Shown piece by piece: positions 1 to 48,565 of a DNA stretch of 64,000 nt. The position numbers and the translations under genes are program-made. The notes under the pieces are model-generated. The model was not told the DNA's origin, did no database searches, and saw only the letters and a list, made by a program, of their open reading frames with translations. Every line of letters begins with the position of its first letter. Positions within the stretch are counted from its first letter, which is position 1. Source of the DNA: Carboxylicivirga sp. M1479 (lineage in GTDB: Bacteria; Bacteroidota; Bacteroidia; Bacteroidales; Marinilabiliaceae); assembly GCF_007097485.1 (NCBI RefSeq), contig NZ_VKDE01000004.1, positions 62,001-126,000 of the forward strand, in the 5' to 3' direction.

Positions 1-2
1 AT

Positions 3-701
3 CGCCATTTTTCGCATCTGCTGGCATTTTATCCTTTAGCCGTATTGGATGTATCTAATAAGAATGAGCATGAACTTTGTCGTCAATCCTTGGAACGCTG
101 GATAACAAGACCTCATAGCGACTGGGGTTTTAAAGGCTATACCTACACTGCTGCCACCGCCATGTACGCCCGATTGGGGGATGCAGAGAAGGCTCTTGAA
201 TCTCTGAACAGATATCTGGATGATTTTGCCACCTATAATACCTTCTATATTGAAACAGGTCCTGTTATCGAAACGCCAATGCATTCTGCATCGGTTACAC
301 TTGAGTTGCTTTTACAATCTTATAAGCTGGATTATGAGCAGGATGAAATCAAGTTATTCCCGGCTTTACCAACAGAGTGGGAAGAAGCATCCTTTTCCAG
401 ACTTCGATCAGAGGGTGGGTTTATTGTCAGTGCAAGCTACGCAAACAAAGCTTTGGAAGGGGCTTGTATCGAAAGTGTGCAGGAACGAAGACTTCGAATC
501 GTTTTACCGGTTAAGCAGGATATCAACTGGAAAACATCAGAGAATTCTTCTTTTGAACTACAACATGAGAATAATAAAACAGTGCTGTCAGGTAATCTAA
601 AAAAGGGAGAAGTGTTATGGATTGGTGAATCTGATTCCCACAGTGACTATGTGAAGATAATTGCTACTGAGAAAACAACATCTTTTTACGGCATTAATTA
701 A
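3..701 (+). CDS. GH95-like glycoside hydrolase, C-terminal part (cut by window edge)
   Basis: The frame is open from base 3, so the start and most of the protein lie to the left of the window. The visible part begins RHFSHLLAFYPL, resembling the RHxSHL..xxP segment late in the (alpha/alpha)6 barrel of GH95. It then has an ETP...SVTLELLLQSY segment and KLFPALPTEW followed by SEGGF, which match the barrel end and C-terminal beta domain of GH95 enzymes (alpha-L-fucosidases and alpha-L-galactosidases). The catalytic residues are upstream and cannot be checked, so the family call rests on pattern similarity alone. The next gene, a sulfatase, starts 29 nt after the stop, so this is the visible beginning of the left operon. 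If GH95 is right, the substrate carries alpha-linked fucose or galactose. Another (alpha/alpha)6-barrel glycosidase remains possible. Confidence 0.6.
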   Translation, partial: RHFSHLLAFYPLAVLDVSNKNEHELCRQSLERWITRPHSDWGFKGYTYTAATAMYARLGDAEKALESLNRYLDDFATYNTFYIETGPVIETPMHSASVTLELLLQSYKLDYEQDEIKLFPALPTEWEEASFSRLRSEGGFIVSASYANKALEGACIESVQERRLRIVLPVKQDINWKTSENSSFELQHENNKTVLSGNLKKGEVLWIGESDSHSDYVKIIATEKTTSFYGIN

Positions 702-730
702 ATCAAGTAGTATAAAACAAAAATAGAATC

Positions 731-2149
731 ATGAAATACACGCTAATCTACTTTCTTTTATTATGTGGAATTATACTCAATGCTCAGGATAAACCCAATA
801 TACTGTTTATATTGGCCGACGACCTGGGAATAAATGCATTGAACTGTTATGGCAACAACATTGTTGAATCGCCCAATATTGACCGTTTGTATTCAGAAGG
901 AATGCATTTCACCAATGGATATTCCAACGATCCAACGTGCGCACCTTCTCGAGCAGCGATAATGACTGGACAACTGGCTCCGCGAACAAATATCTATAGG
1001 GTTGTAGATCGTTACCTAATGGCTAAGAATGCAGAAGAAATGCGCCAAAATATGAAGTACCTGCCGCCAGCAAGTAATCATTTGTATTCAAAGGATAATG
1101 GTTTAAGCCCCGATAAATTAAACATGGCAAAAGTGTTTAAGCAGCATGGCTATCGTACCGCAGCATTTGGTAAATGGCATTTGGGTGTTGGACGCTCAGG
1201 AATGAATAGTCATATGGGATTTGATGAGGCCATTGAAACCAAGAATCATTATGGTTTTAGTACGGTACCAAAGCAAAACGATTATGATGACCTGGTGTAT
1301 AATGCCGACTATTGTACTAAAAAGGGCAATGAGTTTATGAAACGTTGTGTTGAGGATGATCAGCCTTTCTTCTTGTATATGCCATACTACCTGGTGCATG
1401 CTCCATTTGACCCGAAACCGGCTTATGTGACACACTTTAAAAATAAACTACTTGGTACTGAATACGATCATGAACGAGTGATCGACGTACTGGCCATGAT
1501 TCGCTCATTGGATGATAGTGTAGGTGAATTGATGCAAACATTAAAAGAATTGGGAGTTGACGACAATACCATCGTTGTTTTTACTTCCGATAACGGTCAC
1601 TATCAAGTCAAGGGTAACAACATGTTTGCCCAACCATATCGGGGCAATAAAGGCGATGTGTGGGAGGGTGGTATACGCATACCTTATATTTTTAGTTGGC
1701 CCGATCATATCAAACCCGGTTCAAGCTGCTCAACACCAATAGTTCATGTTGATTTACTGCCAACATTAGCTGATCTGGCAAATGTACAAGTGAACCCAAA
1801 CCACCCATTGGATGGGATCTGTTTGAGTAAAGTATTGATGGGAAAAAAAGCACCTGAAAGGGAAATGCCTTTGGTTTGGTTTTATACCAATTACAGTGGT
1901 TTTAATTCCAAAACGAAGCAGTTTAAGTCGAAATGGGTAAATGTGATTCAGTTGAATGATTATAAGCTCATTGAGGATGTAGAAACAGGTCAGTATGAGT
2001 TGTATAGCCTCAAAGAAGACCCGCTGGAAATGAATAATATCTACTCGCTTGATTCTGACAATGCACAACAGTTGCTTGATGAGTTACAAAAAGCCAAAGA
2101 GCAGGCTGGCTTACCACTGCCTACCCCAAACAATGAATACGGAAAATAG
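731..2149 (+). CDS. S1-type sulfatase (arylsulfatase A-like), secreted
   Basis: Formylglycine-dependent sulfatase that hydrolyses sulfate esters from saccharides, probably in the periplasm. Residues 1-19 form a signal peptide ending NAQ. The metal-binding N terminus reads PNILFILADDLG. The maturation signature is CAPSR with Cys70 as the formylglycine precursor, followed by AAIMTGQ. FGKWHLG and VFTSDNGH are the later conserved metal and sulfate-binding motifs. Its 472 aa are typical for family S1. It lies in a run of genes with very short gaps (20 nt to the next sulfatase), so it is probably co-transcribed with the esterases downstream. The exact S1 subfamily and the sulfate position attacked cannot be told from the sequence. 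No sulfatase-maturing enzyme is encoded in this window, so that function must be elsewhere in the genome. Confidence 0.9.
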   Translation: MKYTLIYFLLLCGIILNAQDKPNILFILADDLGINALNCYGNNIVESPNIDRLYSEGMHFTNGYSNDPTCAPSRAAIMTGQLAPRTNIYRVVDRYLMAKNAEEMRQNMKYLPPASNHLYSKDNGLSPDKLNMAKVFKQHGYRTAAFGKWHLGVGRSGMNSHMGFDEAIETKNHYGFSTVPKQNDYDDLVYNADYCTKKGNEFMKRCVEDDQPFFLYMPYYLVHAPFDPKPAYVTHFKNKLLGTEYDHERVIDVLAMIRSLDDSVGELMQTLKELGVDDNTIVVFTSDNGHYQVKGNNMFAQPYRGNKGDVWEGGIRIPYIFSWPDHIKPGSSCSTPIVHVDLLPTLADLANVQVNPNHPLDGICLSKVLMGKKAPEREMPLVWFYTNYSGFNSKTKQFKSKWVNVIQLNDYKLIEDVETGQYELYSLKEDPLEMNNIYSLDSDNAQQLLDELQKAKEQAGLPLPTPNNEYGK

Positions 2150-2168
2150 AAAGTTTTAAAGTGATTGA

Positions 2169-3620
2169 ATGATGAAAATACTGTTACATATTTTAGTTGT
2201 TCTCATTATAGTATTGAATGGTCATCATGCTGATGCGATCGACAACAAGAAAAAGCCTAATATCATATTTATATTTGCTGATGATCAGGCTTATAATACC
2301 ATTAATGCCTTAGGTAATAAGGAAATCAAGACACCCAACTTAGATAAGCTGGTGGAGAGTGGTACCACTTTCACGCATAACTATAACATGGGGGCCTGGG
2401 CAGGAGCAGTTTGTGTTGCTTCACGTACGATGCTTAATACGGGACGCAGTGTGTGGCGGGCCAAAGAATTAAATACCGTATTTCAAAAAGAGGATTCATT
2501 AGCCATCACTCAAACCTGGGGTAATCTGTTAAAACAAGCTGGCTACGATACCTATATGACTGGTAAATGGCACATTCAGGCGGATATCGATAAGTGTTTT
2601 GACTATATCGGAACGAAAAGATACGGGATGCCGAAGCAAACCAAGGCAGGGTATAACAGGCCGGTTGATGAAAACGATAAAAACTGGTTACCCTGGGACA
2701 CTAAACATGGCGGCTATTGGCAAGGCGGCCAACACTGGAGCGAGGTAGTGGGTGATGAATTCATTGATTTTATCGAACAGGCCAAAGGTCGTGAGCATCC
2801 ATTCTTTATGTATGTGGCCTTTAATGCACCCCATGACCCTCGTCAATCGCCTAAAGAATATGTCGATATGTATCCCCTGGATAAGATTTCTGTACCCGAC
2901 AATTATCAGCCTCTTTATCCTGAAAAAGATGACATAGGATGTGGAAAAAATCTGAGAGATGAGAAACTGGCGCCATTTCCGAGAACGGAATATGCGGTTA
3001 AAGTGAATCGTCAGGAGTACTATGCTATTATAACCCACATGGATCATCAGATAGGCCGTATTCTGGATGCCTTAGAGGAAAGTGGACAGAAGGATAATAC
3101 TTACATTTTTTACACGGCCGATCACGGATTGGCCTGTGGCGAACATGGCTTATTGGGTAAGCAAAATATGTATGATCATAGTATGCGTTCACCTCTGATT
3201 GTGATAGGTCCTGATGTGCCCGAAGGTCAAAGAAATGAGGTGGATGTGTATTTACAAGATATCATGCCATCGACGCTTGAAATTGCAGGCCTTGAAAAAC
3301 CCGCCTATGTGGAGTTTAATAGCCTGATGCCACTGATTAAAAACCGTCGTAAAAAAGGGAATTACGATGCCATATATGGTTCCTACAAAGAACTGCAGCG
3401 GATGGTACGGGCCGATGACTATAAGCTCATAGTTTATCCCAAAGCACAGAAGGTGAAGTTGTTTAACCTGAAGAAAGATCCTTTGGAAATTAAAAATCTG
3501 GCAAGCAATCAAAAGTATCAGAAGAAGATAAAAGAATTGTTTGGGCAATTACTTCAATTGCAAGAGGAGATGGATGATGCTTTGGATTTAACAGCTGTGT
3601 TTCCTGAACTGCTCAATTAA
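2169..3620 (+). CDS. S1-type sulfatase with CVASR maturation motif
   Basis: Sulfatase of family S1. A hydrophobic signal segment (residues 2-22) is followed by KPNIIFIFADDQ, the metal-binding start of the fold. The formylglycine site is CVASR at Cys82. Alanine replaces the usual proline, which still satisfies the C-x-(P/A)-x-R rule. The signature continues TMLNTGRSVWRA, seen in a branch of S1 enzymes that includes choline-sulfatase-like proteins. TGKWH, NAPHDPR and TADHGLACGEHGL supply the remaining conserved motifs. It has 483 aa, normal for the family. The gene begins with two ATG codons in a row (2169 and 2172) and either could be used. It sits 19 nt after the preceding sulfatase and 14 nt before the esterase, so they form one operon. 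The substrate is unknown. Confidence 0.88.
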   Translation: MMKILLHILVVLIIVLNGHHADAIDNKKKPNIIFIFADDQAYNTINALGNKEIKTPNLDKLVESGTTFTHNYNMGAWAGAVCVASRTMLNTGRSVWRAKELNTVFQKEDSLAITQTWGNLLKQAGYDTYMTGKWHIQADIDKCFDYIGTKRYGMPKQTKAGYNRPVDENDKNWLPWDTKHGGYWQGGQHWSEVVGDEFIDFIEQAKGREHPFFMYVAFNAPHDPRQSPKEYVDMYPLDKISVPDNYQPLYPEKDDIGCGKNLRDEKLAPFPRTEYAVKVNRQEYYAIITHMDHQIGRILDALEESGQKDNTYIFYTADHGLACGEHGLLGKQNMYDHSMRSPLIVIGPDVPEGQRNEVDVYLQDIMPSTLEIAGLEKPAYVEFNSLMPLIKNRRKKGNYDAIYGSYKELQRMVRADDYKLIVYPKAQKVKLFNLKKDPLEIKNLASNQKYQKKIKELFGQLLQLQEEMDDALDLTAVFPELLN

Positions 3621-3634
3621 AACGTATACAAGAT

Positions 3635-6270: not shown

Positions 6271-7128
6271 ATGATGATATTGAGATTACTGAACATCAGG
6301 CTAATGCTTGCAATAGGAGTGCTATTTATAACAAACATTATTTTAGCTCAGGATGCAAATTTTCATATTTACCTCTGCTTTGGTCAGTCCAACATGGAAG
6401 GGCAGGGAGCGATTGAGGAAAAAGACAGAATAGTGGATGCGCGCTTTCAGGTGATGGCAGCACTGGATTGTAAAGAGCTAAATCGACAAAAAGGCGAATG
6501 GTATACGGCTGTTCCGCCTTTAGGATTTTGTAATAAGGGATTGTCGCCAGCTGACTATTTTGGCCGAACAATGGTGGCGAATTTATCAGACAGCATTAAA
6601 GTTGGTGTTATATCAGTGGCAATAGGAGGCTGCGATATCCGTTTATTTGATAAAGACCAATACCGGGATTATGACTCGAAGGACGGTAAAGCCTGGTTTG
6701 AACGAAAAGTAGCGAGTTATGGAGGTCATCCGTATAATTGTTTAATTGAACTGGCCCAAAAAGCACAGCAGGATGGTGTAATCAAGGGTATATTATTGCA
6801 CCAGGGAGAAACCAATACCGGTAATGCTGAATGGCCAATGTATGTGCAAAAGATTTATAATGACATGCTGGAAGATCTTTCGTTAGAAGCCGATGAGGTG
6901 CCGATTCTGGTGGGAGAGATGGTGTCAGAGCCCGATAACTGTTGCGCCACCATGAACCCGATTATTCATACCCTACCAGAAGTGATACCGAATGCCCATG
7001 TTATTTCATCAGCAGCTTGTCCGGCAAAAGACAGAGCACATTTTAATGCCGAAGGTTACCGCATGATTGGTAAGCGTTATGGGGAGAAGATGTTGTCTCT
7101 AATGAAGAATGTTGAACGTAAAAATTAA
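6271..7128 (+). CDS. CE6-like acetyl esterase (SASA/DUF303 fold), secreted
   Basis: Small SGNH esterase of 285 aa. A signal peptide ends at about residue 27 (LAQDA). The nucleophile is Ser40 in FGQSNMEGQG. Gly and Asn oxyanion-hole residues are in VAIGGCDI and in LLHQGETNTG. The catalytic pair is Asp254 and His257 in DRAHFNAEGY. This set of blocks matches the CE6 acetylxylan esterase family. It is the third esterase in a row in the left operon. CE2, CE6 and SASA enzymes differ in regioselectivity, so the run suggests a substrate acetylated at several hydroxyls (inference). The next gene starts a few tens of bases later. Confidence 0.82.
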   Translation: MMILRLLNIRLMLAIGVLFITNIILAQDANFHIYLCFGQSNMEGQGAIEEKDRIVDARFQVMAALDCKELNRQKGEWYTAVPPLGFCNKGLSPADYFGRTMVANLSDSIKVGVISVAIGGCDIRLFDKDQYRDYDSKDGKAWFERKVASYGGHPYNCLIELAQKAQQDGVIKGILLHQGETNTGNAEWPMYVQKIYNDMLEDLSLEADEVPILVGEMVSEPDNCCATMNPIIHTLPEVIPNAHVISSAACPAKDRAHFNAEGYRMIGKRYGEKMLSLMKNVERKN

Positions 7129-9706: not shown

Positions 9707-9816
9707 TTACCGATTACTATTCAAAATGCGCCTTTCGTTCGCTTCACTCCTAAAGGCACTATGAATATGTATCGGCATTATACCAGCGCACTTTAATATT
9801 TAAATGGTATTATTAA
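9707..9816 (-). repeat. Intergenic repeat, family B, copy 1 (inverted relative to copy 2)
   Basis: On the minus strand this stretch aligns with 13600-13733. Shared blocks, read in the copy 1 plus-strand direction, are TACCGATT, AAATG-GCCTTT, CGCT-CACTCC-AAAG and TATCGGCATTA, ending in a TGGTATTA/TGGTATAA block. The two copies therefore lie in opposite orientation. The outer ends of each copy carry an ATACC-(G/A)-ATT type inverted terminus. The ATG of the following T9SS remnant (9804) lies inside the right end of this copy. No ORF is present. It may be a MITE-like or REP-like element. Confidence 0.5.
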
Positions 9817-10247
9817 TATTTGAGTATTATCAATTTACCAATAATATTGACCTGCCAAGTCCAGAAGTTGAAGGTGCCGATTTTAAATATTGGCTATCGT
9901 CAAATTATACCGATGCCTGGTTTGTTGCCAATAATGTTCCTACAACAAAGGCATATGAGGCAATATATAACGAAACAACAACAACAACAGATATTGACCC
10001 AAGTCCTAGTACTGAAGAAAAGCTACTTATTTATCCTAATCCAAGCACCGGGATAATAACAATTCAATGCAATAGAAAAATAACAAACCTTGTACTAACA
10101 GATTTATCGGGTAGGATAGTTGCACAAAAAGCATGCGCTCATCGTGTTAATGACCTTAATATTTCAGCTTACCCTACAGGTGTTTACCTATTGGTAGCGA
10201 AAGATGGCAAGGCTATTGTTGGACAACAAAAAGTAATAAAACCTTAG
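9804..10247 (+). pseudogene. Remnant of a T9SS-secreted protein (C-terminal sorting domain only)
   Basis: Open frame of 147 aa without a signal peptide. Residues about 70-147 form a complete T9SS sorting domain (LLIYPNPSTGII, LTDLSGRIV, YPTGVYLLVAK). The first 65 residues look like the tail of a larger domain (KYWLSSNYTDAWFVANN) followed by a linker rich in Thr. A sorting domain is useless without a signal peptide and a passenger, so I read this as the 3' end of a gene whose 5' part is lost. The apparent start codon lies within the end of the family B repeat, which suggests that the truncation happened at that repeat or by recombination there. It could instead be a short orphan protein, but that is less likely. 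Confidence 0.6.
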
Positions 10248-12592: not shown

Positions 12593-12929
12593 AAACGATT
12601 GAATTGAATTAAAATTTGAAAGCAAAATAATAAATTGGATAGGTCAGAGATGGAATAGGAATCGTTCAAAAAAAGGTAACATATGATTCAGAATGGTCGA
12701 TGAATGTAAGCTTTTTGGTAACAACACAAAAGTGTTCTGTGTGGTATAGATTTTCCAATGAATTTCACCTGTTATGCCGTTTAGTTTAGTCAATAAAATG
12801 AGCTTTACTTTCAACTGTATCTCAATAGTTTTCGTTGTTGATTCTACGGCATTTACCATTGTAAATCCAAATTTCGCTTAAGCTCAATTTGAATAACAAT
12901 TGGTACTAATTGTTGATGGAATTTATTAA
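12593..12929. other. Gene-free leader region upstream of the minus-strand esterase
   Basis: About 340 nt without a convincing gene. It must hold the promoter for the minus-strand esterase, but I could not identify a clear element of the Bacteroidota TTTG/TAnnTTTG kind. A 71-codon open frame on the minus strand (12644-12859) has no recognisable features. Confidence 0.4.
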
Positions 12930-13238
12930 TAACGTGAGTTCGACATAAATTTAATAGCTCAGACCGCTTGTAAATAATTGGTTTCAAGGAATCTTTGCGA
13001 AAGCATAACTAGTCCCGATTTTTCGGGAGCGGGCTTCCGCTTAACGCGGAACAAGTAATGGTAAGTCAATATGACGAAGAAAACAGTTGTTTACAAGTGG
13101 AAAACTATGCTTTTGATTAAATAACAGATCTACTTTTCTAAATTTTATCACCATAGCTAGGAATGCTTCAAAAATTTATATTGTATATCAGTCATTTAAT
13201 GAAATCTGAGCTGTTTAATTTTAATCGAACTGAGCTTA
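12930..13238 (+). repeat. Structured intergenic element, family A, copy 2
   Basis: A 309-nt relative of the element at 10306-10572, same orientation. Inverted ends are TAACGTGAGTTCGA (12930) and TCGAACTGAGCTTA (13225-13238). Arm 1 pairs 12967-12974 (CTTGTAAA) with 13090-13097 (TTTACAAG). Compared with copy 1, the central A-T pair has become G-C on both sides. In arm 2 a T-A pair (10459/10525 in copy 1) is C-G here (13125/13191). About 40 nt are inserted in the tip of arm 1 (about 13008-13060), and this insertion folds into its own hairpins (CCCGA...TCGGG and TTCCGC...GCGGAA). No ORF is present. Confidence 0.65.
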
Positions 13239-13374
13239 ATAAGCGTGTGAAGGTTTATAAAATAGTTTTTCAGTAAATATCAAATAGAACCTGATGTATA
13301 TCATCCTCATAATGCCAATTGTGAGAAATTGAAAGTGTCCTTTAAGCTCTTGTCAGTAAGGTTGCCTGGATTCT

Positions 13375-13397
13375 AAGGTATGTTTACAATATACCTT
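13375..13397. other. Short hairpin AAGGTAT/ATACCTT
   Basis: A 7-bp perfect stem with a 9-nt loop in otherwise featureless sequence (13239-13421). There is no T-tract, so a terminator role is doubtful. It lies just upstream of the 11-bp tandem repeats. Confidence 0.35.
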
Positions 13398-13421
13398 CTC
13401 CGTACCTGCTCAATACCAACT

Positions 13422-13560
13422 TGCCCTTAAAGTCATACTAAACTCATACTAAACTCAAATTAAACTCATACCAAACTCATATTAAATTCGATTTTATATG
13501 AGTTTAATGTGAGTTAAATATGCCTTAGGTATATCTTGAGTATGATTTTAAAGCGAGGCA
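13422..13560. repeat. 11-bp tandem repeats inside a long imperfect palindrome
   Basis: From 13434 to 13490 an 11-bp unit close to ATACTAAACTC is repeated five times with few changes. The following bases (13491-13521) carry the inverted form (ATGAGTTTAAT, GTGAGTTAAAT). Outer arms near 13422-13440 and 13538-13560 are also complementary (TGCC..TTAAA..CATACT against AGTATGA..TTTAAA..GGCA). The whole block could fold into one long hairpin, or offer several protein sites on one helix face because 11 bp is close to one DNA turn. It is non-coding; the short minus-strand frame here (13525-13710) has no protein-like features. Confidence 0.55.
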
Positions 13561-13599
13561 CTTAGGGCCTTGGTAGCTTGTGGTCTCGATTACGACATA

Positions 13600-13733
13600 C
13601 TTATACCAATTGCATTTCAAACTGATCCTTAAGTGAAGCGTTGAAATTGCAATCGTTAATGCCGATAATAAACGAAAAAGTCTTTGGGAGTGAGCGATGC
13701 AAAGGCTCATTTAGATATTAAATCGGTATTATT
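13600..13733 (+). repeat. Intergenic repeat, family B, copy 2
   Basis: Plus-strand relative of the 9707-9816 stretch. It starts TTATACCAATT and ends AAATCGGTATTAT, which are imperfect inverse complements, so it has terminal inverted repeats. The internal blocks TTAATGCCGATAAT and GGGAGTGAGCGATGCAAAGG correspond to those in copy 1. No coding potential. Confidence 0.5.
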
Positions 13734-13845
13734 TCATTGATTATGCCCATGTAGATATGAAAAAACTTAATTATACGCTGTAGCACAGGATGTAAACGAA
13801 TGGCTAAATAGCTGGATGAAACTCTTTAATTACTTGCTTTAATCC

Positions 13846-13963
13846 GCATTATTCATCACAATAAATGTAATCAATTTTATTTGCGGGTTAACCCCGACAT
13901 AGTCCCACCCAATTTTGAGTAACAAAATTGATGGTAAGACTTAGTCGTCATCAAGAATAATGC
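13846..13963. other. Nested stem-loop downstream of the HTCS gene
   Basis: Outer arms GCATTATTC (13846-13854) and GAATAATGC (13955-13963). Inner arms ATCAATTTT (13870-13878) and AAAATTGAT (13924-13932), with a further CGGGTTAACCCCG hairpin between them. It lies just past the stop of the minus-strand regulator gene, so it could end or protect that transcript. It lacks a clean T-tract on the minus strand. The remaining gap sequence (13734-13845) shows nothing. Confidence 0.45.
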
Positions 13964-13984
13964 ATATTTGGTGAATAATTGGGG

Positions 13985-18221: not shown

Positions 18222-19691
18222 ATGAAACGCAATATTTTTTTAGCATTGGTTATAACATTGGGGTTATTGTCGTGCACAAATAGTACTAAATCAAAACAAG
18301 CGAAAAAGCCTAACGTCTTATTCTTTCTGGTAGATGATTTAGGGTGGATGGACGTAGGCTATAATGGTTCTCCATTTTATGAAACTCCCAATATTGATCA
18401 ATTAGCTAACGAAGGCGTCCGTTTTAATAACGCTTATGCAACACACCCAAGGTGTGTGCCATCACGCTATTCATTAATAACTGGGCGTTACCCGGCACGC
18501 GCTCAGATGCCTGGTCCGGGTGAAGGCAAATTAAATCCTACGAAAGGTGTTTATCCTGGTGATGAAGCCCGATTAGAAGCCGATGAGGTGACCATTGCCG
18601 ATGCTATGAGAGCTGGTGGTTACACCACCTTCTTTGCGGGTAAATGGCATTTGGCATTTTCAGGAACCATGCCTGAGCATGTTGGCTTTGATATTAATGT
18701 GGCTGGCGGGCATGCCGGATCGCCTATCTCATTTTTTGCACCTTATAATGAGAGTCATCGCAGTACGAAAAAGAAACCCATTGAAGGACTAGATGACGCC
18801 CCCGATGGCGAATACCTGACTGATAGAATTACGGATGAAACAATTCAGTTTTTGAATAATCATCAGGCAACACATCCAGAAAAACCATTTTTTGCGTATG
18901 TTTCACATTATGCCGTTCATGAGCCCATTGAAGCCAAGCAAGAACACGTCGACAAGTTCGAGGCCAAGAAGAAGAGCATGACCTACACCGGTGAGCCTTT
19001 TATTGAAGAGGGAACAGGTACCACAAAGATGCATCAGGATAATGCGACCTATGCTGGTATGGTTTATAGCATGGACGAAAGCTTAGGACGTATAAGCGCA
19101 AAATTGGCGGAGTTGGGACAATTAGATAATACGATCATTGTCTTTTTCTCGGATAATGGTGGATTGTCGAACCGAGGTTTTAATCCCAGAAGAGTGGCAA
19201 CATCCAATTATCCTCTTAGGGCAGGAAAAGGGCATTTGTATGAGGGAGGAGTAAGAGAGCCTTTAATTGTCAAGTGGCCTGGTATTGTTAAGAAAGGGAT
19301 GCAGAGTAATGCATTGGTAACCGGTAATGATTTCTTTCCTACCATCCTTGAGATGGTTGGTTTAGAGCCATTGCCTCTAGCGCATTTAGACGGCGAAAGT
19401 GTTGTGTGGGCATTAAAAGAGCAGCAGAATCCTAATCCGGAACGTGCTGTTTTTTGGCACTCACCAGTTGACCGTCCGCATGCTACGGGCGATTCAAATA
19501 GTACAGCCATCAGAAAGGGGCCGTACAAATTAATTGAGTTTTATGATCAGGATGTTGTGGAACTCTATAATATAGAAGAGGATATTGAAGAAAAGCATGA
19601 TTTGTCGGAACAATTGCCGGAGATCAAAAAGGCTTTATTAGAAGAATTACATCAATGGCGTTTAGATGTTAATGCCTATATTAAAAAGTAA
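18222..19691 (+). CDS. S1-type sulfatase lipoprotein (arylsulfatase A-like)
   Basis: Sulfatase of 489 aa. The lipobox LLSC (about residues 15-18) predicts a lipoprotein anchored in a membrane. PNVLFFLVDDLGWMDVGYNG is the metal-binding start. The maturation motif is CVPSR with Cys78, followed by YSLITGRYPAR. FAGKWHLA, HYAVHEPIEA and FFSDNGGLSNRG complete the active site. It is clearly a paralogue of the sulfatase at 37050, sharing the THPRCVPSRYS and GPG blocks. It is the first gene right of the HTCS on the opposite strand and may have its own promoter. Regiospecificity is unknown. Confidence 0.9.
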   Translation: MKRNIFLALVITLGLLSCTNSTKSKQAKKPNVLFFLVDDLGWMDVGYNGSPFYETPNIDQLANEGVRFNNAYATHPRCVPSRYSLITGRYPARAQMPGPGEGKLNPTKGVYPGDEARLEADEVTIADAMRAGGYTTFFAGKWHLAFSGTMPEHVGFDINVAGGHAGSPISFFAPYNESHRSTKKKPIEGLDDAPDGEYLTDRITDETIQFLNNHQATHPEKPFFAYVSHYAVHEPIEAKQEHVDKFEAKKKSMTYTGEPFIEEGTGTTKMHQDNATYAGMVYSMDESLGRISAKLAELGQLDNTIIVFFSDNGGLSNRGFNPRRVATSNYPLRAGKGHLYEGGVREPLIVKWPGIVKKGMQSNALVTGNDFFPTILEMVGLEPLPLAHLDGESVVWALKEQQNPNPERAVFWHSPVDRPHATGDSNSTAIRKGPYKLIEFYDQDVVELYNIEEDIEEKHDLSEQLPEIKKALLEELHQWRLDVNAYIKK

Positions 19692-19882: not shown

Positions 19883-21070
19883 ATGTTGAAGAATGTAAAG
19901 TTATTTCTGTTGCTTTTACTGACTTATCAGATTGATGCTCAGAATACCTGTAGTGAAAATGAATTAGTGGCAATTAGTGGCAATGTTGCGCCCATATCAT
20001 CCTATTCACTTGGCATGAGTAGTGGTGTTGGTGGCACCATGCTTTATTGTCCTTCAGACTACAATCATGATAATGGCGGACATTATTATTTGCAGTATGT
20101 TGATCTGGGGGGCACCGGGATGGATGGCTACCCCAACATTAGGATTGGAGGTTCTCAATATGGCGGACAATGGCATCCCGGCGATTATAACATCACAGGC
20201 ATGCCCGTTCAAATCAAGGATATTCCTGAAGCTATGGAAATAGAGTGGGTTTGCAGTCAGGCCAATGCCACTGATAGTGATGACAAATGGATGGCTTCTA
20301 TCAATTTTATATTCGACATGTATGGCGATGAAACCAGCAAGCCAGTAAGCGTAGAGCGTGATTATGATCTGGTGATAAAGGCACAAAGTTTTAACTTTAA
20401 TGATAATCTGGAGGATCAGCCAGAGGTGAAGAATGGCATCCTCTATTTTTTTGCCCGTAACGCCGACCATAGTTTAAAGCCATTTGAAATAAGTATCAAT
20501 GGTCGTGTTTATACCTATGCTGTTCGTTATAAGTTTTTTGACGGACAAGGCGACAAGGATGATAAAGCACATATAAAGCTGATACCATATGGTGACAATG
20601 GGGCTCCACCTGCACTGCGGATGAAGGTGAAAGAGCTGATTGCAACCACAAAGGAATTTGTACAATATGCTAATATTCCAGAGCCTTATTTAAGTTTGGC
20701 TTTAAATAACATTGCTCAGGATGACACCTGGATGAAAGCCATCAATGCCGGTTATGAGGTTTATACAGGTCAGTCGCAATTGAATATCACCAAATATAAG
20801 TTGTGGACAGATGGTTTGCCGACTTCAATTGCAAAATATGAAATGGTGAAGCAAGGAATTGGGCCTAATCCTGCCAGGGATATTGTTTATATTTTCGATA
20901 ATGACGTGCCATGTACTGTTCAGTGCTTTTCGATTAGAGGACAAGAGCAGAGTATTCAATTAGTAAATAATTCATTCCGTGTAGCACATATAAAAAATGG
21001 CTTTTACATTATTAGGGTGGTAAATTGTAAAGGAGAAACAAGTCATTACAAATTAATGGTAGACAAATAA
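19883..21070 (+). CDS. Secreted GH12-like beta-jelly-roll protein with T9SS tail
   Basis: Protein of 395 aa. A signal peptide ends at about residue 20 (QIDAQ). The main domain (about 25-310) resembles GH12 endoglucanases and xyloglucanases in order of blocks: YPNIRIGG, PVQIKDIPEAMEIEW, WMASINFIFDMYGD, DYDLVIKAQ, GRVYTYAVRY, and INAGYEVYTGQSQL near the end. The GYEVYTG block fits the GH12 acid/base site (Glu292). At the nucleophile block, where GH12 usually has E-(I/L)-MIW, this protein has D-LVIKA with Asp162. It ends with a T9SS-like domain (IGPNPARDIVYIF, NGFYIIRVV). If the family is right it cuts or binds a beta-glucan at the cell surface. The assignment is by pattern only, and a non-catalytic or new family is possible. 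Confidence 0.5.
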   Translation: MLKNVKLFLLLLLTYQIDAQNTCSENELVAISGNVAPISSYSLGMSSGVGGTMLYCPSDYNHDNGGHYYLQYVDLGGTGMDGYPNIRIGGSQYGGQWHPGDYNITGMPVQIKDIPEAMEIEWVCSQANATDSDDKWMASINFIFDMYGDETSKPVSVERDYDLVIKAQSFNFNDNLEDQPEVKNGILYFFARNADHSLKPFEISINGRVYTYAVRYKFFDGQGDKDDKAHIKLIPYGDNGAPPALRMKVKELIATTKEFVQYANIPEPYLSLALNNIAQDDTWMKAINAGYEVYTGQSQLNITKYKLWTDGLPTSIAKYEMVKQGIGPNPARDIVYIFDNDVPCTVQCFSIRGQEQSIQLVNNSFRVAHIKNGFYIIRVVNCKGETSHYKLMVDK

Positions 21071-43015: not shown

Positions 43016-43654
43016 ATGTATAGAACAATTATATTAGCACTAGGACTATTTATGTATGCACAGCTTGGTGTGGCGCAATTGCAAATCAATAAGCCAAAGA
43101 CCATATACCTGACACTTGATGACGGACCGTCCGGATCTTTAACAGAGCAATTTCTGGATTTGTTTGACCAATATGCTGTGAAGGCTACTTTCTATCATAT
43201 GGGTAAGAAGGCTACACATCAAATATCACTTTGCAAAAAGATTATCAGCAAAGGGCATGAAATCGGGAATCACAGCTGGACGCATAGGAAGCTAACGGAA
43301 TTATCTGAAGCAGAGGTGAGGGAAGAATTAATATCTTTTCAGGATTTGTATATGCAGCAACTCAATTACCAACCTGCCACTTTTAGAGCTCCATTCTTAA
43401 AAACCAATGCCTTTATTGATGGTTTGGTGGATAGTTTGGGCATGACAAACCATAAAATAAATGCTTATGCCAGGGATGCAAAACCTAAGGTTGAGGTAGA
43501 AATAGTCGTTAACCATTTAAGTGATCTGAATGGCGAAAAGGTAGTGATATTATGTCACGAACGTCCTCATACCTTAAATGCATTAAAGAGCTTACTGCCA
43601 ATGTGGAAGGATATGGGCTATGAGTTTAAAGCATTGGGAGATGATAGACAATAG
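43016..43654 (+). CDS. CE4 polysaccharide deacetylase, stand-alone
   Basis: 212-aa metal-dependent deacetylase of the NodB/CE4 fold. The signal peptide covers about 1-21. LTLDDGPSG carries Asp35 (base) and Asp36 (metal), GNHSWTH carries the metal ligands His86 and His90, TFRAPFLKT matches motif 3, and LCHERPHT near the end holds the catalytic His. These motifs resemble the CE4 half of the fusion protein at 7170, including the CHERxHT block. It has no T9SS tail, so it likely works in the periplasm while the fusion works outside. The substrate could be O-acetylated sugar or N-acetylglucosamine. Neighbours favour a plant- or algal-type polysaccharide. Confidence 0.88.
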   Translation: MYRTIILALGLFMYAQLGVAQLQINKPKTIYLTLDDGPSGSLTEQFLDLFDQYAVKATFYHMGKKATHQISLCKKIISKGHEIGNHSWTHRKLTELSEAEVREELISFQDLYMQQLNYQPATFRAPFLKTNAFIDGLVDSLGMTNHKINAYARDAKPKVEVEIVVNHLSDLNGEKVVILCHERPHTLNALKSLLPMWKDMGYEFKALGDDRQ

Positions 43655-43696: not shown

Positions 43697-45937
43697 ATGA
43701 ACAGATTGGCAACAAGATTAATATTGGTGGCAGCATGCTTTTTAATGGTGTGTTGTGCTACTCAGGAAATTACCAAAGAAGAGAAGCAGATTGAAGAGCT
43801 GTTGGCTCAAATGTCTATTGACGACAAAATTGGACAAACCGCTTTAAGAGGTACTTCCAGTCGAGTAAAAGGGGCATTGTCTGAGGAATTTAAACAAGCC
43901 GTTCGTGATGGACAGGTAGGCAGCGTACTCAATGTGATGAATGTTGAATATGTCAAGGAGTTGCAAGGTATCGCTGTTGAAGAGAGTCGATTGGGTATTC
44001 CACTTATTTTTGCCCGTGATGTGATTCACGGTTTTAAAACCATCTTCCCCATTCCTATTGGTTTAGCAGCCAGTTGGGATGAGCAAACAGCTTATGACTG
44101 TGCTCGTGTTTCGGCCCTTGAAGCTTCGTCTCAAGGTATTCGCTGGACTTTTGCTCCCATGCTAGATATTGCTCGTGATAGCCGTTGGGGAAGAGTGGCC
44201 GAGTCGCCGGGGGAAGATCCATATTTAGCATCGATTTTGGCCAAAGCATACATCAGAGGTTTCCAAGGGGATAGTTTATCAGACCCAAGCTCTATGGCAG
44301 CTTGTGCCAAGCACTTTTTGGGGTATGGAGCGGCCATTGGTGGGCGTGATTATAATTCGGTAGTTATCCATAACGCGGAAATGCAAAACATATATCTACC
44401 TCCGTTTAAGGCAGCTATAGATGCAGGATCGGCCACCATTATGTCTTCATTCAATGATATAAACGGTATTCCTGCCACAGGCAATCGATTTATTCTGCGC
44501 GATATATTACGCGACCAGCTGGGTTTTAATGGCTTTGTAGTGAGTGACTGGAATTCGGTAACAGAAATGATACCACATGGCTTTGCAGCTGATGAAAAGG
44601 AAGCCGGCAAACTATCCGCCATTGCAGGTTTAGACATGGAAATGACTAGTGCCGCATACCAGAAGCATTTAAAACAACTCATTGAATCGGGGGAAGTGAG
44701 CATGGATGTGCTAGATGACATGGTACGAAACATCCTAAGGGTAAAAATACAACTGGGGCTTTTCGAATCGCCATACATACCTGATCATCATCCAGGACAG
44801 ATGTACGCAGATGAAAGTTTGGCATCGGCATATGATGCTGCAGTTAATAGCTTTGTGTTGCTTAAAAACAACAAAGTATTGCCATTAAATACAAGCGACA
44901 AGATTTTTTTAACCGGGCCTTTGTCCGATGCACCACATGATCAATTAGGTACCTGGTCGTTTGATGGTGATAAGGCGCACACCGTAACGGTAAAAGATGC
45001 CTTTGAAAGTAATTCATCCACACAGTTTATTAATGGTTTGAATTATAGTCGTGATACATCAAAGAAACAGTTTAGAGCCACGCTAGCTAAGGCTCAAAAA
45101 GCCGATGTGATAGTTTTTGTTGGTGGAGAAGAGGCTATCCTCTCAGGCGAGGCACACAGTCGTGCCGATATCCGTTTACCCGGTATTCAAGAAGAATTAC
45201 TTCTTGAACTCAGTCAAACGGGTAAGCCAATTGTATTGGTAATAATGGCGGGACGACCAATAAATATTATGGCTGTATTGCCACATGTAGATGCTGTTTT
45301 GATGGCCTGGCATCCAGGTACGAATGGAGGGCCGGCCTTGTATGATGTATTGACCGGCAGTAGAGAGCCAGGGGGCAGATTACCTATCACCTGGCCCAAA
45401 AGTGCAGGGCAGTCGCCTATCTATTATAATCAAAAGAATACTGGCCGTCCGGCCGATAAGGAATCGTTCGTTCATATGGATGATATCCCGGTTGGCGCCT
45501 GGCAAAGTTCACTTGGGAATAAAAGCCATTATCTGGATGCTGGATTTTTACCAGCCTTTCCTTTTGGTTATGGACTGACCTATACTAGTTTTGATTATTC
45601 CAATTTGCAGCTTTCGGATACGACAATGAATGATGCGGGTAATATAAAGATGATTGTTACCCTAACCAATACAGGCAGCCGAAAAGGAACAGAAATAGTG
45701 CAACTGTATTTGCAAGATCAAACAGCCAGTATTACTCGTCCGGTAAAAGAGTTGAAGGATTATCAAAAGGTAACTTTGTTAGCCGGTGAGTCTCGCGAAA
45801 TTGAATTTATTATTAACGCTTCGCAGCTCACATTTTATAATAATGATAATAAAATGGTGTTGGAACCTGGTGTTTTTAATGTTTTTGTTGGAGGTAACTC
45901 TCAGCATGTACTCTCTAACTCCTTTCGTTTTGAATAG
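43697..45937 (+). CDS. GH3 beta-glucosidase-like lipoprotein (second copy)
   Basis: Start at ATG 43697, giving a lipoprotein signal (MNRLATRLILVAACFLMVCC); the GTG at 43658 is upstream in the same frame. The GH3 barrel shows IDDKIGQTALRG, FARDVIHGFKTIFPIPIGLAASWD and WGRVAESPGEDP. The nucleophile is Asp284 in GFVVSDWNSV. The second domain has NSFVLLKNNKVLPL and FVGGEEAILSGEAHSRADI. A fibronectin III-like C-terminal domain has TRPVKELKDYQKV. About 746 aa. The residues after the nucleophile differ from the 26142 enzyme, so the two GH3 enzymes probably cut different linkages or side chains. It lies just after the CE4 gene. Confidence 0.92.
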   Translation: MNRLATRLILVAACFLMVCCATQEITKEEKQIEELLAQMSIDDKIGQTALRGTSSRVKGALSEEFKQAVRDGQVGSVLNVMNVEYVKELQGIAVEESRLGIPLIFARDVIHGFKTIFPIPIGLAASWDEQTAYDCARVSALEASSQGIRWTFAPMLDIARDSRWGRVAESPGEDPYLASILAKAYIRGFQGDSLSDPSSMAACAKHFLGYGAAIGGRDYNSVVIHNAEMQNIYLPPFKAAIDAGSATIMSSFNDINGIPATGNRFILRDILRDQLGFNGFVVSDWNSVTEMIPHGFAADEKEAGKLSAIAGLDMEMTSAAYQKHLKQLIESGEVSMDVLDDMVRNILRVKIQLGLFESPYIPDHHPGQMYADESLASAYDAAVNSFVLLKNNKVLPLNTSDKIFLTGPLSDAPHDQLGTWSFDGDKAHTVTVKDAFESNSSTQFINGLNYSRDTSKKQFRATLAKAQKADVIVFVGGEEAILSGEAHSRADIRLPGIQEELLLELSQTGKPIVLVIMAGRPINIMAVLPHVDAVLMAWHPGTNGGPALYDVLTGSREPGGRLPITWPKSAGQSPIYYNQKNTGRPADKESFVHMDDIPVGAWQSSLGNKSHYLDAGFLPAFPFGYGLTYTSFDYSNLQLSDTTMNDAGNIKMIVTLTNTGSRKGTEIVQLYLQDQTASITRPVKELKDYQKVTLLAGESREIEFIINASQLTFYNNDNKMVLEPGVFNVFVGGNSQHVLSNSFRFE

Positions 45938-45973
45938 GAAATAGAGGTCTTGAAAAGAAATAAAAAATGATTA

Positions 45974-47446
45974 ATGATGAGAAATAGTTATTTATTGACC
46001 CTGCTAATTACCGTATTACTGCTAAATGTCGGGGAAGCATCGGGCAAGAAACGTCCGAATATATTGTTTATCGAATGCGACGATTTAATGCCGCGATTTA
46101 TGAATAAAGTGGGCGATGGTTTTGGCATCACACCCAACCTGGATCAGTTGGCCACAGATGGGGTTTATTTTAAAAACTCGGTGTGTCAGGCACCCATGTG
46201 TGCACCGTCGCGAAATGGGTTATTAACCAACCTGTATCCGCACGAATTGGGCTTTTACCGTAACGGACATCGCAAGTTACTACCTAATGATGTATGGACA
46301 TTTCCACAAGAACTGCAAAAACATGGCTACACAACAGCGTATATCGGAAAAACTCATATGCGCCCAAAATCCTTTAAGCAGTCAAAAGAAGAGGCCTTGT
46401 TGAGTTATGGTTTTGATTATGCCAAGGCTACAGGTGAACGTTACCAGCTGTGGAAAAAGCTAAACGTCAAAAAACCATATGGAAAACAAGATGTGTTTAT
46501 TAAGTTTCTAAAGGACGAAGGGAAATATGAGCAGTTTCTGGAGGATAATAAACATGGTGCCTGGTCGTGGTACAGTCATAGCACCATGGATGATGATGTG
46601 CATTATCTGGATGGTTACACCACCATGGTAGGTAAAAACTGGCTAGAGACGCAAAGAGATGCTGAAAAACCATTCTTTTTGTGGTTTAACTTCTGTTTGC
46701 CACACGATCCGTATGATGCACCTAGTCAATATCAACAAGCCGCCAAAGCCATTGATATTCCTGCTGCTAAAACCGCTAACTTTGGTCATGAAGTGCCCGA
46801 ATTGTTAACCAAGGACTCGCATGGTAAATTACCGAATGCTGAAAACCTGGCTCGCAGACGAGAAGGGGAAGTTGCTAATGTGATGTTTATGGATAAGATG
46901 ATTGGAAACCTGGTAGAACAGCTAAAAGAAAGTGGCTTGTATGACAATACCGTGATCGTTTTCTTTTCTGATCATTCCATTTTTCTTGGCAACCATGGCA
47001 TCGACGGTAAAGGTTCTTTGTTTGAAGAGTCTCTGCTGGCATCATTAATTGTAAGTTATCCAAAATATTTTCAAAAAGATGTGGTATCGGACATGCCAGT
47101 TGAGTTGATGGATTTAGTGCCGACAGCCTTTGAATTAGCGGGGATTAAAAAGCCTGAGAAAACGGCGCAGAATGGCAAAAGTATTGTGCCTGTATTATCA
47201 GGTAAAATCGAATCGGTTCGTAAGTATGCTATTTCAGAAATATGGCAGGCACAGGCAGTGAGTGGATCGCGCTTTCGCTTAATCGCAACGGAATTAGGCC
47301 ATGAGTTTTTGTACGATCATGATATTGATCCATATGAAATGAATAATGTGGCAGAACAACACCCTGAAGTAGTGAATGAGATGAAGGACTATCTTGAGCG
47401 ATGGAAAGCATCAACAGGTGAGTTTATTAAACCAAATACCTACTAA
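45974..47446 (+). CDS. S1-type sulfatase, secreted
   Basis: 490 aa. Starts MMRNSYLLTLLITVLLLNVGEASG, a signal peptide. PNILFIECDDLMPRFMNKVG has Cys instead of the small residue before the first metal Asp. Maturation motif CAPSR with Cys76, followed by NGLLTNLYPHELGFYRNGHR. IGKTHMRP replaces GKWH. FFSDHSIFLGNHGIDGKGSLFEES is the later metal block. The sequence is unlike the other nine sulfatases, so it represents another subfamily and probably another sulfate position. It follows the GH3 gene by 36 nt and precedes the GH5 gene by 24 nt. Confidence 0.88.
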   Translation: MMRNSYLLTLLITVLLLNVGEASGKKRPNILFIECDDLMPRFMNKVGDGFGITPNLDQLATDGVYFKNSVCQAPMCAPSRNGLLTNLYPHELGFYRNGHRKLLPNDVWTFPQELQKHGYTTAYIGKTHMRPKSFKQSKEEALLSYGFDYAKATGERYQLWKKLNVKKPYGKQDVFIKFLKDEGKYEQFLEDNKHGAWSWYSHSTMDDDVHYLDGYTTMVGKNWLETQRDAEKPFFLWFNFCLPHDPYDAPSQYQQAAKAIDIPAAKTANFGHEVPELLTKDSHGKLPNAENLARRREGEVANVMFMDKMIGNLVEQLKESGLYDNTVIVFFSDHSIFLGNHGIDGKGSLFEESLLASLIVSYPKYFQKDVVSDMPVELMDLVPTAFELAGIKKPEKTAQNGKSIVPVLSGKIESVRKYAISEIWQAQAVSGSRFRLIATELGHEFLYDHDIDPYEMNNVAEQHPEVVNEMKDYLERWKASTGEFIKPNTY

Positions 47447-47470
47447 CGATATTCTTAGAATCTATTTCCC

Positions 47471-48565
47471 ATGAAAACATTAAGCTTATCATTAATTTTA
47501 GTTCTTAGTTTTTTATTGTCCAATGCTCAGGAAAATACCTTAGCAGGATTTGAAATTCAGAATAACAAACAATTGCGGTTTGTACGAGATATGGGCGTAG
47601 GCTGGAATCTTGGAAATACACTTGATTCTAAAGGGAAGGATGAAACAGCATGGGCCAATCCTAAAGCCACCAAGGAGCTTGTTAATGTTATAAAAGAAAA
47701 GGGTTTTAATACGCTAAGAGTGCCGGTGACCTGGCAATACCATATTGGAGCTGGTCCTCACTATCAAATAGAGTCGGCTTGGTTAAATCGAGTGGAAGAG
47801 GTTGTAAATTATGGTTTGGACAATAAAATGTACGTGATTATTAATATTCATCATGATGAAGAATGGGTAATCGCAACCTATAAGGAGTGTGAGAGAGTGA
47901 AGCAACAACTGAGCAAGGTGTGGACTCAAATTGCTGAACATTTTAAAAACTACCCCGATAAACTAATATTTGAAACCTTAAATGAAGTGCGATTAAAAGA
48001 TACACCTGAGGAATGGAATGGGGGTAGTGCTGAAAGTCGTGACTGCCTCAATCAGTTTCACCAAGTGTGTGTCGATGCTATCAGAGCCACTGGGAATCGA
48101 AATAAGCAACGTTATCTGATGATATCACCTTATGCTGCATCATCGATACCAAATGCTCTAAATGATTTTTATTTGCCCGACGATAAAAACCTTATTGTAT
48201 CGATCCATAATTATTACCCTTGGAAGTTGTGCCTTGAAAAGACACGCAAAAACTGGGGGACTGAAAAGGATAAGATGGAACTAGACAAAGAGTTTGACCG
48301 CTTAGTAGCAAAATATTTATCCAAGGGTATACCGGTTGTTATGGGAGAATGGGGGACCATGAATAATGAAAATACCCAGGATCGTATCAGGCATGCCGAA
48401 TATTACTCGGCAGCATGCTTGAAAAGAGGAATCTGTCCTATTTGGTGGGACAATGGTTATCCTCACGAGTTTGCTATTATTGATCGCAAAAATAACGAAT
48501 GGCTATTTCCCGAAATAGCAGATGCTATCATACAGTCGCAAATAATTTTTTCTACGACTAAATAG
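47471..48565 (+). CDS. GH5 endo-beta-glucanase (GH5_4-like)
   Basis: 364-aa retaining endo-glycanase with a TIM barrel. The signal peptide is 1-19 (ending NAQ). GVGWNLGNTLDSKGKDETAW, GFNTLRVPVTWQYHIG and YVIINIHHDEEW are the conserved GH5 blocks and closely resemble GH5 subfamily 4, which includes endoglucanases and xyloglucanases. Acid/base Glu172 in FETLNEVR and nucleophile Glu293 in VVMGEWGT are both present. No lipobox and no T9SS tail are seen, so it may act in the periplasm. In this context it points to a beta-1,4-glucan or xyloglucan-type main chain. It is the last gene of the core cluster; a stem-loop follows its stop. Confidence 0.92.
   Translation: MKTLSLSLILVLSFLLSNAQENTLAGFEIQNNKQLRFVRDMGVGWNLGNTLDSKGKDETAWANPKATKELVNVIKEKGFNTLRVPVTWQYHIGAGPHYQIESAWLNRVEEVVNYGLDNKMYVIINIHHDEEWVIATYKECERVKQQLSKVWTQIAEHFKNYPDKLIFETLNEVRLKDTPEEWNGGSAESRDCLNQFHQVCVDAIRATGNRNKQRYLMISPYAASSIPNALNDFYLPDDKNLIVSIHNYYPWKLCLEKTRKNWGTEKDKMELDKEFDRLVAKYLSKGIPVVMGEWGTMNNENTQDRIRHAEYYSAACLKRGICPIWWDNGYPHEFAIIDRKNNEWLFPEIADAIIQSQIIFSTTK

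What the first reader, a model, noticed from the sequence alone, without database searches (positions are those of the whole stretch)
1..48565. PUL pairing a beta-glucan backbone toolkit with ten sulfatases and six esterases
Seen: one SusCD pair, an HTCS, GH5, GH9, GH9-like, GH12-like, two GH3, a GH95-like end, ten S1 sulfatases of several subfamilies, and CE2, CE6, SASA, CE4 and SGNH esterases. Known: GH5_4, GH9, GH12 and GH3 act on beta-glucan or xyloglucan, while sulfatase-rich PULs usually carry fucoidan, carrageenan, ulvan or glycosaminoglycan enzymes, none of which are recognised here. Inference: the substrate is a sulfated, acetylated, maybe fucosylated beta-glucan-like polymer, for which I know no described PUL.
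Basis: partly seen in the sequence, partly recalled or inferred. Interest (0 to 1): 0.75.

Follow-up and report, generated by a model that had tools for sequence, protein, structure and literature searches.

The report
Sulfated beta-glucan digestion gene cluster
A marine bacterium and its relatives share a gene cluster in which sulfate-removing enzymes are tied to enzymes that cut cellulose-like sugar chains, which points to a way of eating sulfated beta-glucans such as those reported from seaweed walls.

Summary
In detail: 10 S1 sulfatases, 6 esterase genes, one SusCD pair, an HTCS, GH5, GH9, GH9-like, two GH3 and a GH95 end lie at window 1-48565; 'GH12-like' has only weak profile support. 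The right border is real; the left is the window edge: the locus runs about 25 kb further (five sulfatases, two GH10, two GH29, the rest of GH95, esterases). Eleven family relatives (Carboxylicivirga and four other genera) separate core from accessories: GH3, GH9 and sulfatases S1c, S1d, S1f, S1g are in 11 of 11, behind HTCS-SusCD where contigs allow. This GH9 is one clade (100/99); 13 of 13 members have sulfatases within 10 kb, against 1 of 20 distant GH9 loci examined. Two relatives insert a cellobiose phosphorylase and transporter into the core; a third has its tail. So sulfatases and beta-glucanases likely serve one substrate, most likely a sulfated beta-1,4- or mixed-linkage glucan. Fucosidases are accessory; some esterases recur. 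Xyloglucan is disfavoured (no GH31 in the locus), xylan not excluded. The polymer is unproven; red-algal sulfated mixed-linkage glucan is a candidate. No described PUL for it turned up in the papers searched.

The parts
3..701 (+). C-terminal end of GH95 (full gene G000:C65:60407-62701, 764 aa)
   Evidence: PF22124/PF21307
731..2149 (+). S1 sulfatase S1a; 0 of 11 relatives; paralogue (67%) in the C50 cluster of the same genome
   Evidence: PF00884
2169..3620 (+). S1 sulfatase S1b (CVASR motif); 0 of 11 relatives
   Evidence: PF00884
3635..5146 (+). SASA-type esterase (SASA1)
   Evidence: PF03629
5162..6250 (+). CE2-type acetyl esterase; 70% homologue in Labilibacter sediminis (L067)
   Evidence: PF17996 + SGNH; NF042969 below its cut-off
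6271..7128 (+). SASA/CE6-type esterase (SASA2); 74% homologue in G742
   Evidence: PF03629
7149..9659 (+). CE4 deacetylase fused to SGNH esterase, T9SS tail; 50% homologue in L067
   Evidence: PF01522, PF13472, PF18962
10730..12625 (-). CBM4_9 + SGNH esterase
   Evidence: PF02018, PF13472
13985..17935 (-). HTCS (hybrid two-component sensor); 51-94% in 9 of 11 relatives, not fetched or cut off in the other two
   Evidence: Reg_prop, Y_Y_Y, HisKA, HATPase, response regulator, HTH_18
18222..19691 (+). S1 sulfatase S1c; CORE, 64-96% in 11 of 11 relatives
   Evidence: PF00884
19883..21070 (+). GH12-like protein with T9SS tail (GH12L); 3 of 11 relatives; 7 loci in the genome-contig scan
21222..24437 (+). 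SusC
   Evidence: TIGR04056 844 bits
24441..26060 (+). SusD
   Evidence: PF07980, PF14322
26082..28463 (+). GH3 (GH3a); CORE, 65-80% in 11 of 11
   Evidence: PF00933
28475..30184 (+). GH9; CORE, 52-68% in 11 of 11; nearest solved structure BoGH9A
   Evidence: PF00759
30271..31872 (+). S1 sulfatase S1d, next to GH9; CORE, 65-77% in 11 of 11
   Evidence: PF00884
31886..33379 (+). S1 sulfatase S1e; 4 of 11
   Evidence: PF00884
33410..35404 (+). S1 sulfatase S1f; CORE, 57-98% in 11 of 11
   Evidence: PF00884
35432..36949 (+). S1 sulfatase S1g, GlcNAc-6-sulfatase-like; CORE, 78-99% in 11 of 11
   Evidence: PF00884
37038..38501 (+). S1 sulfatase S1h; 2 of 11
   Evidence: PF00884
38572..40047 (+). 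S1 sulfatase S1i; 4 of 11
   Evidence: PF00884
40048..42903 (+). GH9-like (GH9L): ricin lectin + CelD_N + GH9 + LTD + T9SS tail; 1 of 11 relatives, also in G637 (55%) and L067 (79%); DAHSRD in place of the usual GH9 DAGD motif
43016..43654 (+). CE4 deacetylase; 3 of 11
   Evidence: PF01522
43658..45937 (+). GH3 (GH3b); 2 of 11
   Evidence: PF00933
45974..47446 (+). S1 sulfatase S1j; 2 of 11 (40-41%)
   Evidence: PF00884
47471..48565 (+). GH5 (GH5_4-like) endo-glucanase, end of the locus; 0 of 11
   Evidence: PF00150

Best explanation
A polysaccharide utilization locus for a sulfated beta-glucan: a beta-1,4-linked (possibly mixed beta-1,3/1,4) glucose backbone carrying sulfate esters. Shown by sequence: the gene content, the conserved core, and that this GH9 clade is linked to sulfatases. 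Inferred: the HTCS senses an oligosaccharide and switches the genes on; secreted and surface enzymes (among GH5, GH9, GH9-like, GH12-like, esterases, some sulfatases; location not tested) open the chain; SusCD imports sulfated oligosaccharides; the core sulfatases (S1c, S1d, S1f, and S1g, which resembles GlcNAc-6-sulfatases and so may take 6-sulfated glucose) strip sulfate so that GH3, or cellobiose phosphorylase in some relatives, can finish the backbone. In this genome the locus is enlarged by GH29, GH95, GH10 and more esterases, so its version of the polymer is probably also fucosylated and acylated, as in brown-algal sulfated xylofucoglucans.
For: GH3a, GH9, S1c, S1d, S1f and S1g are in 11 of 11 family relatives whose GH9 loci were read, seven of the own genus and four of other genera, in the order GH3-GH9-S1d-S1f-S1g with S1c after S1g in 10 of 11 (in G693, as here, S1c stands next to HTCS). 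S1g orthologues (80-99%) are in 13 of 71 family genomes, own included, and the close GH9 in 12 of 71, all 12 among the 13; on one contig less than 8 kb apart in 11 of 12, on two contig ends in the twelfth. Sulfatases within 10 kb of GH9: 13 of 13 close loci, 1 of 20 distant ones examined out of 41 distant rows; five of the 20 lie in genomes that also have the core, and all five lack sulfatases. The 13 close GH9s form one clade, 100/99. GH94 in the core of G701 is a cellobiose phosphorylase by nearest structure (1340 bits, against 488 for chitobiose and 51.5 for laminaribiose phosphorylase); G709 has it at 85% and G686 a 74% tail next to S1f. GH9 nearest BoGH9A xyloglucanase (1e-114); GH5 nearest a GH5 endoglucanase (6gl2, 1e-130; recalled as Zobellia ZgEngA, which PMC9296495 cites for a mixed-linked glucan PUL, passages). 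S1g nearest a mucin-desulfating and a GlcNAc-6-sulfatase. Sulfated mixed-linkage glucan is reported from the red alga Kappaphycus (PMC5460208, PMC7997180, passages), and sulfated mixed-linked glucans from red algae in general (PMC8307928, passages).
Against: No activity, expression or growth data. GH9, GH3 and GH5 are polyspecific, and GH3a's best solved match is a 'beta-xylosidase' (7zb3, 2e-152), ahead of the best named beta-glucosidase (9urf, 1e-132). The upstream GH10 pair fits a xylan. The own genome's only GH94 lies on another contig. GH5 is in 0 of 11 relatives. The genomes with the core are one bacterial family, so the conservation is partly common descent. The Melioribacteraceae MAG that shares GH12L, GH9L and GH10 lacks S1f, S1g, GH3a and the close GH9 in the stretch read, and carries a rhamnosidase and a GH95-sulfatase fusion. 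Only two of the ten window sulfatases were compared with solved structures.
Confidence: 0.6

Rival explanations
1. A sulfated, fucosylated xyloglucan or xylofucoglucan locus (brown-algal hemicellulose) in which GH9 and GH5 cut the glucan backbone and GH29/GH95 remove fucose.
For: GH9 nearest BoGH9A; GH29 x2 and GH95; a second own-genome cluster pairs GH9 and S1d paralogues with GH29 (69%) and S1a (67%) paralogues. Sulfated xylofucoglucans are named as marine algal polymers in PMC4454575 (passages), sulfated xyloglucans as likely PUL substrates in PMC6298971 (passages).
Against: No GH31 alpha-xylosidase among the scanned window and upstream genes; in BoXyGUL its deletion abolishes growth on xyloglucan (PMC4967831, passages); this genome's GH31 genes are on other contigs. 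No GH29 homologue in the 11 relatives' fetched stretches; their other unmatched genes were mostly not scanned.
Confidence: 0.17
2. A sulfated beta-xylan locus: GH10 cuts the backbone, GH3 finishes it, sulfatases and esterases strip it.
For: Two GH10 upstream, one GH10 also in G727 and G742 (73-75%) and the Melioribacteraceae MAG (46%) beside the same genes; GH3a nearest a beta-xylosidase; sulfated beta-xylan PULs have been predicted (PMC6298971, passages).
Against: No GH43, GH30, GH67 or GH115 found by Pfam in the scanned genes; GH10 in 2 of 11 relatives' stretches while GH9 is in 11 of 11; cellobiose phosphorylase in relatives; the one GH10 compared is only 1e-19 to known xylanases.
Confidence: 0.12
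3. A mosaic: a neutral beta-glucan PUL and a fucose-containing sulfated polysaccharide (FCSP) locus that happen to abut, each induced by its own substrate.
For: GH29/GH95 are characteristic of predicted FCSP PULs (PMC6298971, passages), and these lie in the left part that relatives lack; in Leeuwenhoekiella GH12L stands near a GH29 (36%) and two sulfatases.
Against: The core sulfatases follow GH3 and GH9 in one co-directional run and are conserved with them in 11 of 11 relatives; the GH9 clade is sulfatase-linked as a clade.
Confidence: 0.11

Closest known systems
Bacteroides ovatus xyloglucan locus (BoXyGUL; PMC4967831, passages)
   Same: SusCD-type transport, endo-glucanases of GH5 and GH9 (nearest GH9 structure is BoGH9A), GH3
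   Different: 10-15 S1 sulfatases and many esterases here; no GH31, GH2 or GH43 among the scanned genes
Predicted sulfated beta-xylan and FCSP PULs of North Sea Flavobacteriia (PMC6298971, passages)
   Same: SusCD with sulfatases; GH10 or GH29/GH95 present
   Different: Backbone enzymes of the core here are GH9 and GH3 and, in some relatives, GH94; no GH43/GH30/GH115 among the scanned genes
Zobellia mixed-linked glucan degradation by ZgEngA GH5_4 (title seen in the reference list of PMC9296495)
   Same: The GH5 gene here is nearest to 6gl2/6gl0 (that these are ZgEngA is recalled)
   Different: Here GH5 sits in a sulfatase locus; the ZgEngA paper itself was not read

Membership tests
SusCD-type polysaccharide utilization locus | Adjacent SusC and SusD genes with co-oriented CAZymes and a sensor/regulator | tested here: met
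SusCD-type polysaccharide utilization locus | Induced by and needed for growth on one glycan | not testable with these tools
   needs expression and knock-out work
S1 sulfatase (formylglycine sulfatases) | PF00884 domain and C-x-[PA]-x-R motif (motif recalled) | tested here: met
   10 of 10 window genes: (9 of 10), and S1i read
S1 sulfatase (formylglycine sulfatases) | A maturation enzyme in the genome | tested here: inconclusive
   FGE family PF03781 present (178 bits); anaerobic type TIGR03942 not over its cut-off (50.5 bits)
Xyloglucan PUL | Endo-glucanases of GH9/GH5 type and GH3 | tested here: met
Xyloglucan PUL | GH31 alpha-xylosidase in the locus | tested here: not met
   in the genome only on contigs C40 and C41
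Sulfated beta-xylan PUL | GH10 with GH43 and/or GH30, GH67, GH115 | tested here: not met
   GH10 present upstream, the others not among the scanned genes
FCSP/fucoidan PUL | GH29/GH95 fucosidases with sulfatases | tested here: met
   GH29 x2, GH95; but not in the 11 relatives at 40% or more
FCSP/fucoidan PUL | A known fucan-cutting backbone enzyme | tested here: inconclusive
   None named by Pfam in the scanned genes; CAZy models were not at hand
GH12 | PF01670 over its cut-off | tested here: not met
   window gene; no PF01670 match in the own genome
GH12 | Remote profile homology over the catalytic domain | tested here: inconclusive
   hhalign probability 23%, score 31.3, co-linear over 176 columns, above all 60 shuffles; AlphaFold model poor (pLDDT 54.6) and no Foldseek match at E 0.001
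GH9 (gene 40048) | PF00759 over its cut-off | tested here: met
   72.8 bits against 27.7
GH9 (gene 40048) | DAGD catalytic-base motif (recalled) | tested here: not met
   DAHSRD in its place in the window gene and in L046; the L067 fragment does not cover it

The most novel reading that the evidence does not exclude
This is the dedicated pathway for sulfated (mixed-linkage) beta-glucan of seaweed walls, such as the red-algal sulfated mixed-linkage glucan, with glucose-sulfate-specific S1 sulfatases (S1d as the partner of GH9, S1g for 6-sulfate), a GH9 clade that needs or tolerates sulfate, and two new backbone-cutting families (GH12-like with Asp for the GH12 nucleophile Glu; GH9-like with DAHSRD).
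Probability: 0.25. Interest if true: 0.78.

Novelty: new variant of a known kind. Interest (0 to 1): 0.55.

Why it matters
Sulfated beta-glucans are known chemically in red algae, but I found no described degradation locus in an open-licence paper library (searches; listings and passages only). If right, the locus gives sulfatases for sulfated glucose, a GH9 clade adapted to a sulfated backbone, and a marker (the GH9-S1d-S1g core) to track this polymer's turnover in sediments and on seaweeds.

Tried and rejected
Ordinary neutral glucan PUL with stray sulfatases: rejected by the conserved core and by the 13 of 13 against 1 of 20 control. The one control locus with sulfatases (L101, two of them) is not in the clade. 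The 20 control loci were picked by me from 41, mostly the higher-scoring ones, not at random.

GH12L structure: AlphaFold with 7 homologues was poor; Foldseek gave no match at E 0.001 and its listing was not used. A first hhalign run gave 98% but had aligned signal peptides and T9SS tails, so it was dropped for the trimmed run (23%). The first GH12L search in the order (295 genomes) gave, besides the own gene, only matches to the C-terminal tail (query residue 237 or later).

Sulfatase subfamilies: NCBIfam gave no hit over a cut-off for any of the 10 window sulfatases; only S1g and S1d were compared with solved structures, so no S1_n labels are claimed. S1d's best match is an unnamed sulfatase (9fvt), uninformative.

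Papers: only passages or search listings were seen; the searches covered the open-licence library only. One search asked for two narrow phrases together and returned nothing, so it is weak evidence of absence.

A SusC/SusD comparison printed nothing and was redone.
Full report
What is there. The window is contig C65:62001-126000 of a 5.44 Mb genome. The right end is exact: the TPR gene, the 2544-aa subtilase and the DUF4625 gene that follow have 71%, 60% and 75% identical counterparts in the same order after the core of G731 (between subtilase and DUF4625 the window has two genes, G731 one). The left end is the window edge. Upstream lie, in order, S1 (minus), a GH51-like/S1/T9SS fusion (minus; GH51-like only by PDB match of 5e-9), a CBM4_9 protein, S1, BD-FAE esterase, S1-SGNH fusion, SGNH, GH10 twice, S1, GH29 twice, and the bulk of GH95.

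What is conserved. The SusD search in 60 family genomes led to loci with the same order. Reading 11 relatives (tabulated; 40% identity or more) gives: GH3a, GH9, S1c, S1d, S1f, S1g in 11 of 11; HTCS in 9; SusC and SusD of the same type in 8, with those of G690 at the end of another contig and a different type in G693 and G735 (SusC 41% and 37%, SusD 30%); S1e and S1i in 4; CE4 and GH12L in 3; S1h, S1j, GH3b in 2; GH9L and SASA2 in 1; GH5, GH29, GH95, CE2, CE4-SGNH, CBM-SGNH, SASA1, S1a and S1b in none. These counts are lower bounds, since only stretches were fetched. Of the upstream block, S1-SGNH is in 6, the GH51-like fusion and S1b of that block in 5, SGNH in 4, GH10 in 2. In G727 and G742 that block runs straight into GH12L, HTCS and SusCD, so it belongs to the same locus; the GH29/GH95/S1c part next to the window was not seen in the 11.

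Outside these. A Melioribacteraceae MAG (G637) has GH12L beside GH9L, with GH10, BD-FAE and many sulfatases at 40-62% identity, but no close GH9, GH3a, S1f or S1g in the 75.7 kb contig read, and a rhamnosidase and a GH95-sulfatase fusion instead. Labilibacter sediminis has GH12L near GH9L (79%), CE2 (70%), CE4-SGNH (50%) and the GH51-like fusion (61%); Leeuwenhoekiella nanhaiensis has it near two sulfatases and a distant GH29.

Controls. Among 71 family genomes, S1g (80-99%, own included) is in 13 and close GH9 (53% or more) in 12, all among the 13. The thirteenth, G737, has an S1g fragment near a contig end and only a distant GH9. Thirty-five genomes have only distant GH9 (47% or less, E 1e-60). 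Of 41 distant GH9 rows I read the surroundings of 20: sulfatases in the fetched 10-20 kb in 1 of 20, against 13 of 13 for close GH9 loci, the own C50 paralogue included (sulfatase model built from this locus's own S1 genes). The tree puts the 13 in one clade (100/99), separate from the rest. The relatives share ancestry, so this is linkage kept in a clade, not 13 independent events.

Why a glucan. GH9 is nearest to the xyloglucanase BoGH9A, GH5 to a GH5 endoglucanase. G701 and G709 hold, between S1d and S1f, a sugar transporter (MFS_2 in G701) and a GH94 that in G701 is clearly a cellobiose phosphorylase; G709's is 85% identical, and G686 has a 74% tail next to S1f. Cellobiose as a product implies beta-1,4-linked glucose. 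The own genome keeps its only GH94 on another contig. Against this, GH3a's best solved match is a beta-xylosidase. Xyloglucan is disfavoured because the GH31 alpha-xylosidase, essential in BoXyGUL (PMC4967831, passages), is not among the scanned genes of the locus. Xylan is disfavoured, not excluded: GH43, GH30, GH67 and GH115 are missing and GH10 is not in the fixed core. S1g resembles GlcNAc-6-sulfatases, which would suit 6-sulfated glucose; that is inference.

What the polymer may be. A sulfated mixed-linkage glucan, 64% sulfated on the 1,4-linked residues, is reported from Kappaphycus alvarezii (PMC7997180, passages; also PMC5460208), and sulfated mixed-linked glucans from red algae (PMC8307928, passages). 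Algal sulfated xylofucoglucan (PMC4454575, passages) would suit the GH29/GH95 additions of this genome. A survey of 2,154 PULs in 79 Marinilabiliales genomes (PMC12325347, passages) names laminarin, alpha-glucans, alginate, mannans and fucans; the passages I saw name no sulfated beta-glucan. It gives 106 sulfatases for C. marina.

Verdict. Function remains a prediction.

Noticed in passing
window 19697 to about 31900 against G693:C128 (L074, L075): Cassette exchange: own genome and C. marina are about 90-91% identical in DNA over HTCS-S1c and again from about S1e on, but GH12L, GH3a and GH9 between them drop to 71-75%, S1d is only 68% identical as protein, and SusCD is a different type (41%/30%); the C. 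marina type is 85-88% identical to that of G735, another genus.
   Followed up: partly
G000:C50:53392-67477 (L072, L073): A second sulfatase-rich cluster in the same genome, without SusC in the 33.6 kb read, repeats GH9 (66%), S1d (66%), S1a (67%) and GH29 (69%); its GH9 groups with C. marina's locus GH9, not with the own one.
   Followed up: partly
window 19883-21070: GH12L: a rare family (7 loci in the genome-contig scan by two peptide patterns; 2 of 395 phylum genomes, own included), with an Asp invariant in 7 of 7 near where the GH12 nucleophile Glu (recalled) would fall and an invariant Glu in GYEVY. In Wenyingzhuangia gilva only 188 aa of it lie in one open frame.
   Followed up: partly
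window 9804-10247: 147-aa ORF of which the recognisable part is a T9SS sorting tail: perhaps the remnant of a larger secreted protein.
   Followed up: no
window 12626-13984: 1.36 kb of low-GC (33%) DNA without an ORF of 120 aa and without a tblastn match to the relatives' proteins used.
   Followed up: no
L046:9752-13660 and G000:C65:38806-42621: Single proteins joining a glycosidase to a sulfatase: GH95-S1 in the Melioribacteraceae MAG and GH51-like-S1-T9SS upstream of the window.
   Followed up: no
window 51087-58721 and G000:C65:27947-35563: Two giant proteins (2544 aa, subtilase with T9SS tail, and 2538 aa, not scanned; 27% identical) flank the locus on both sides, each near a SusC gene of another locus.
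   Followed up: no
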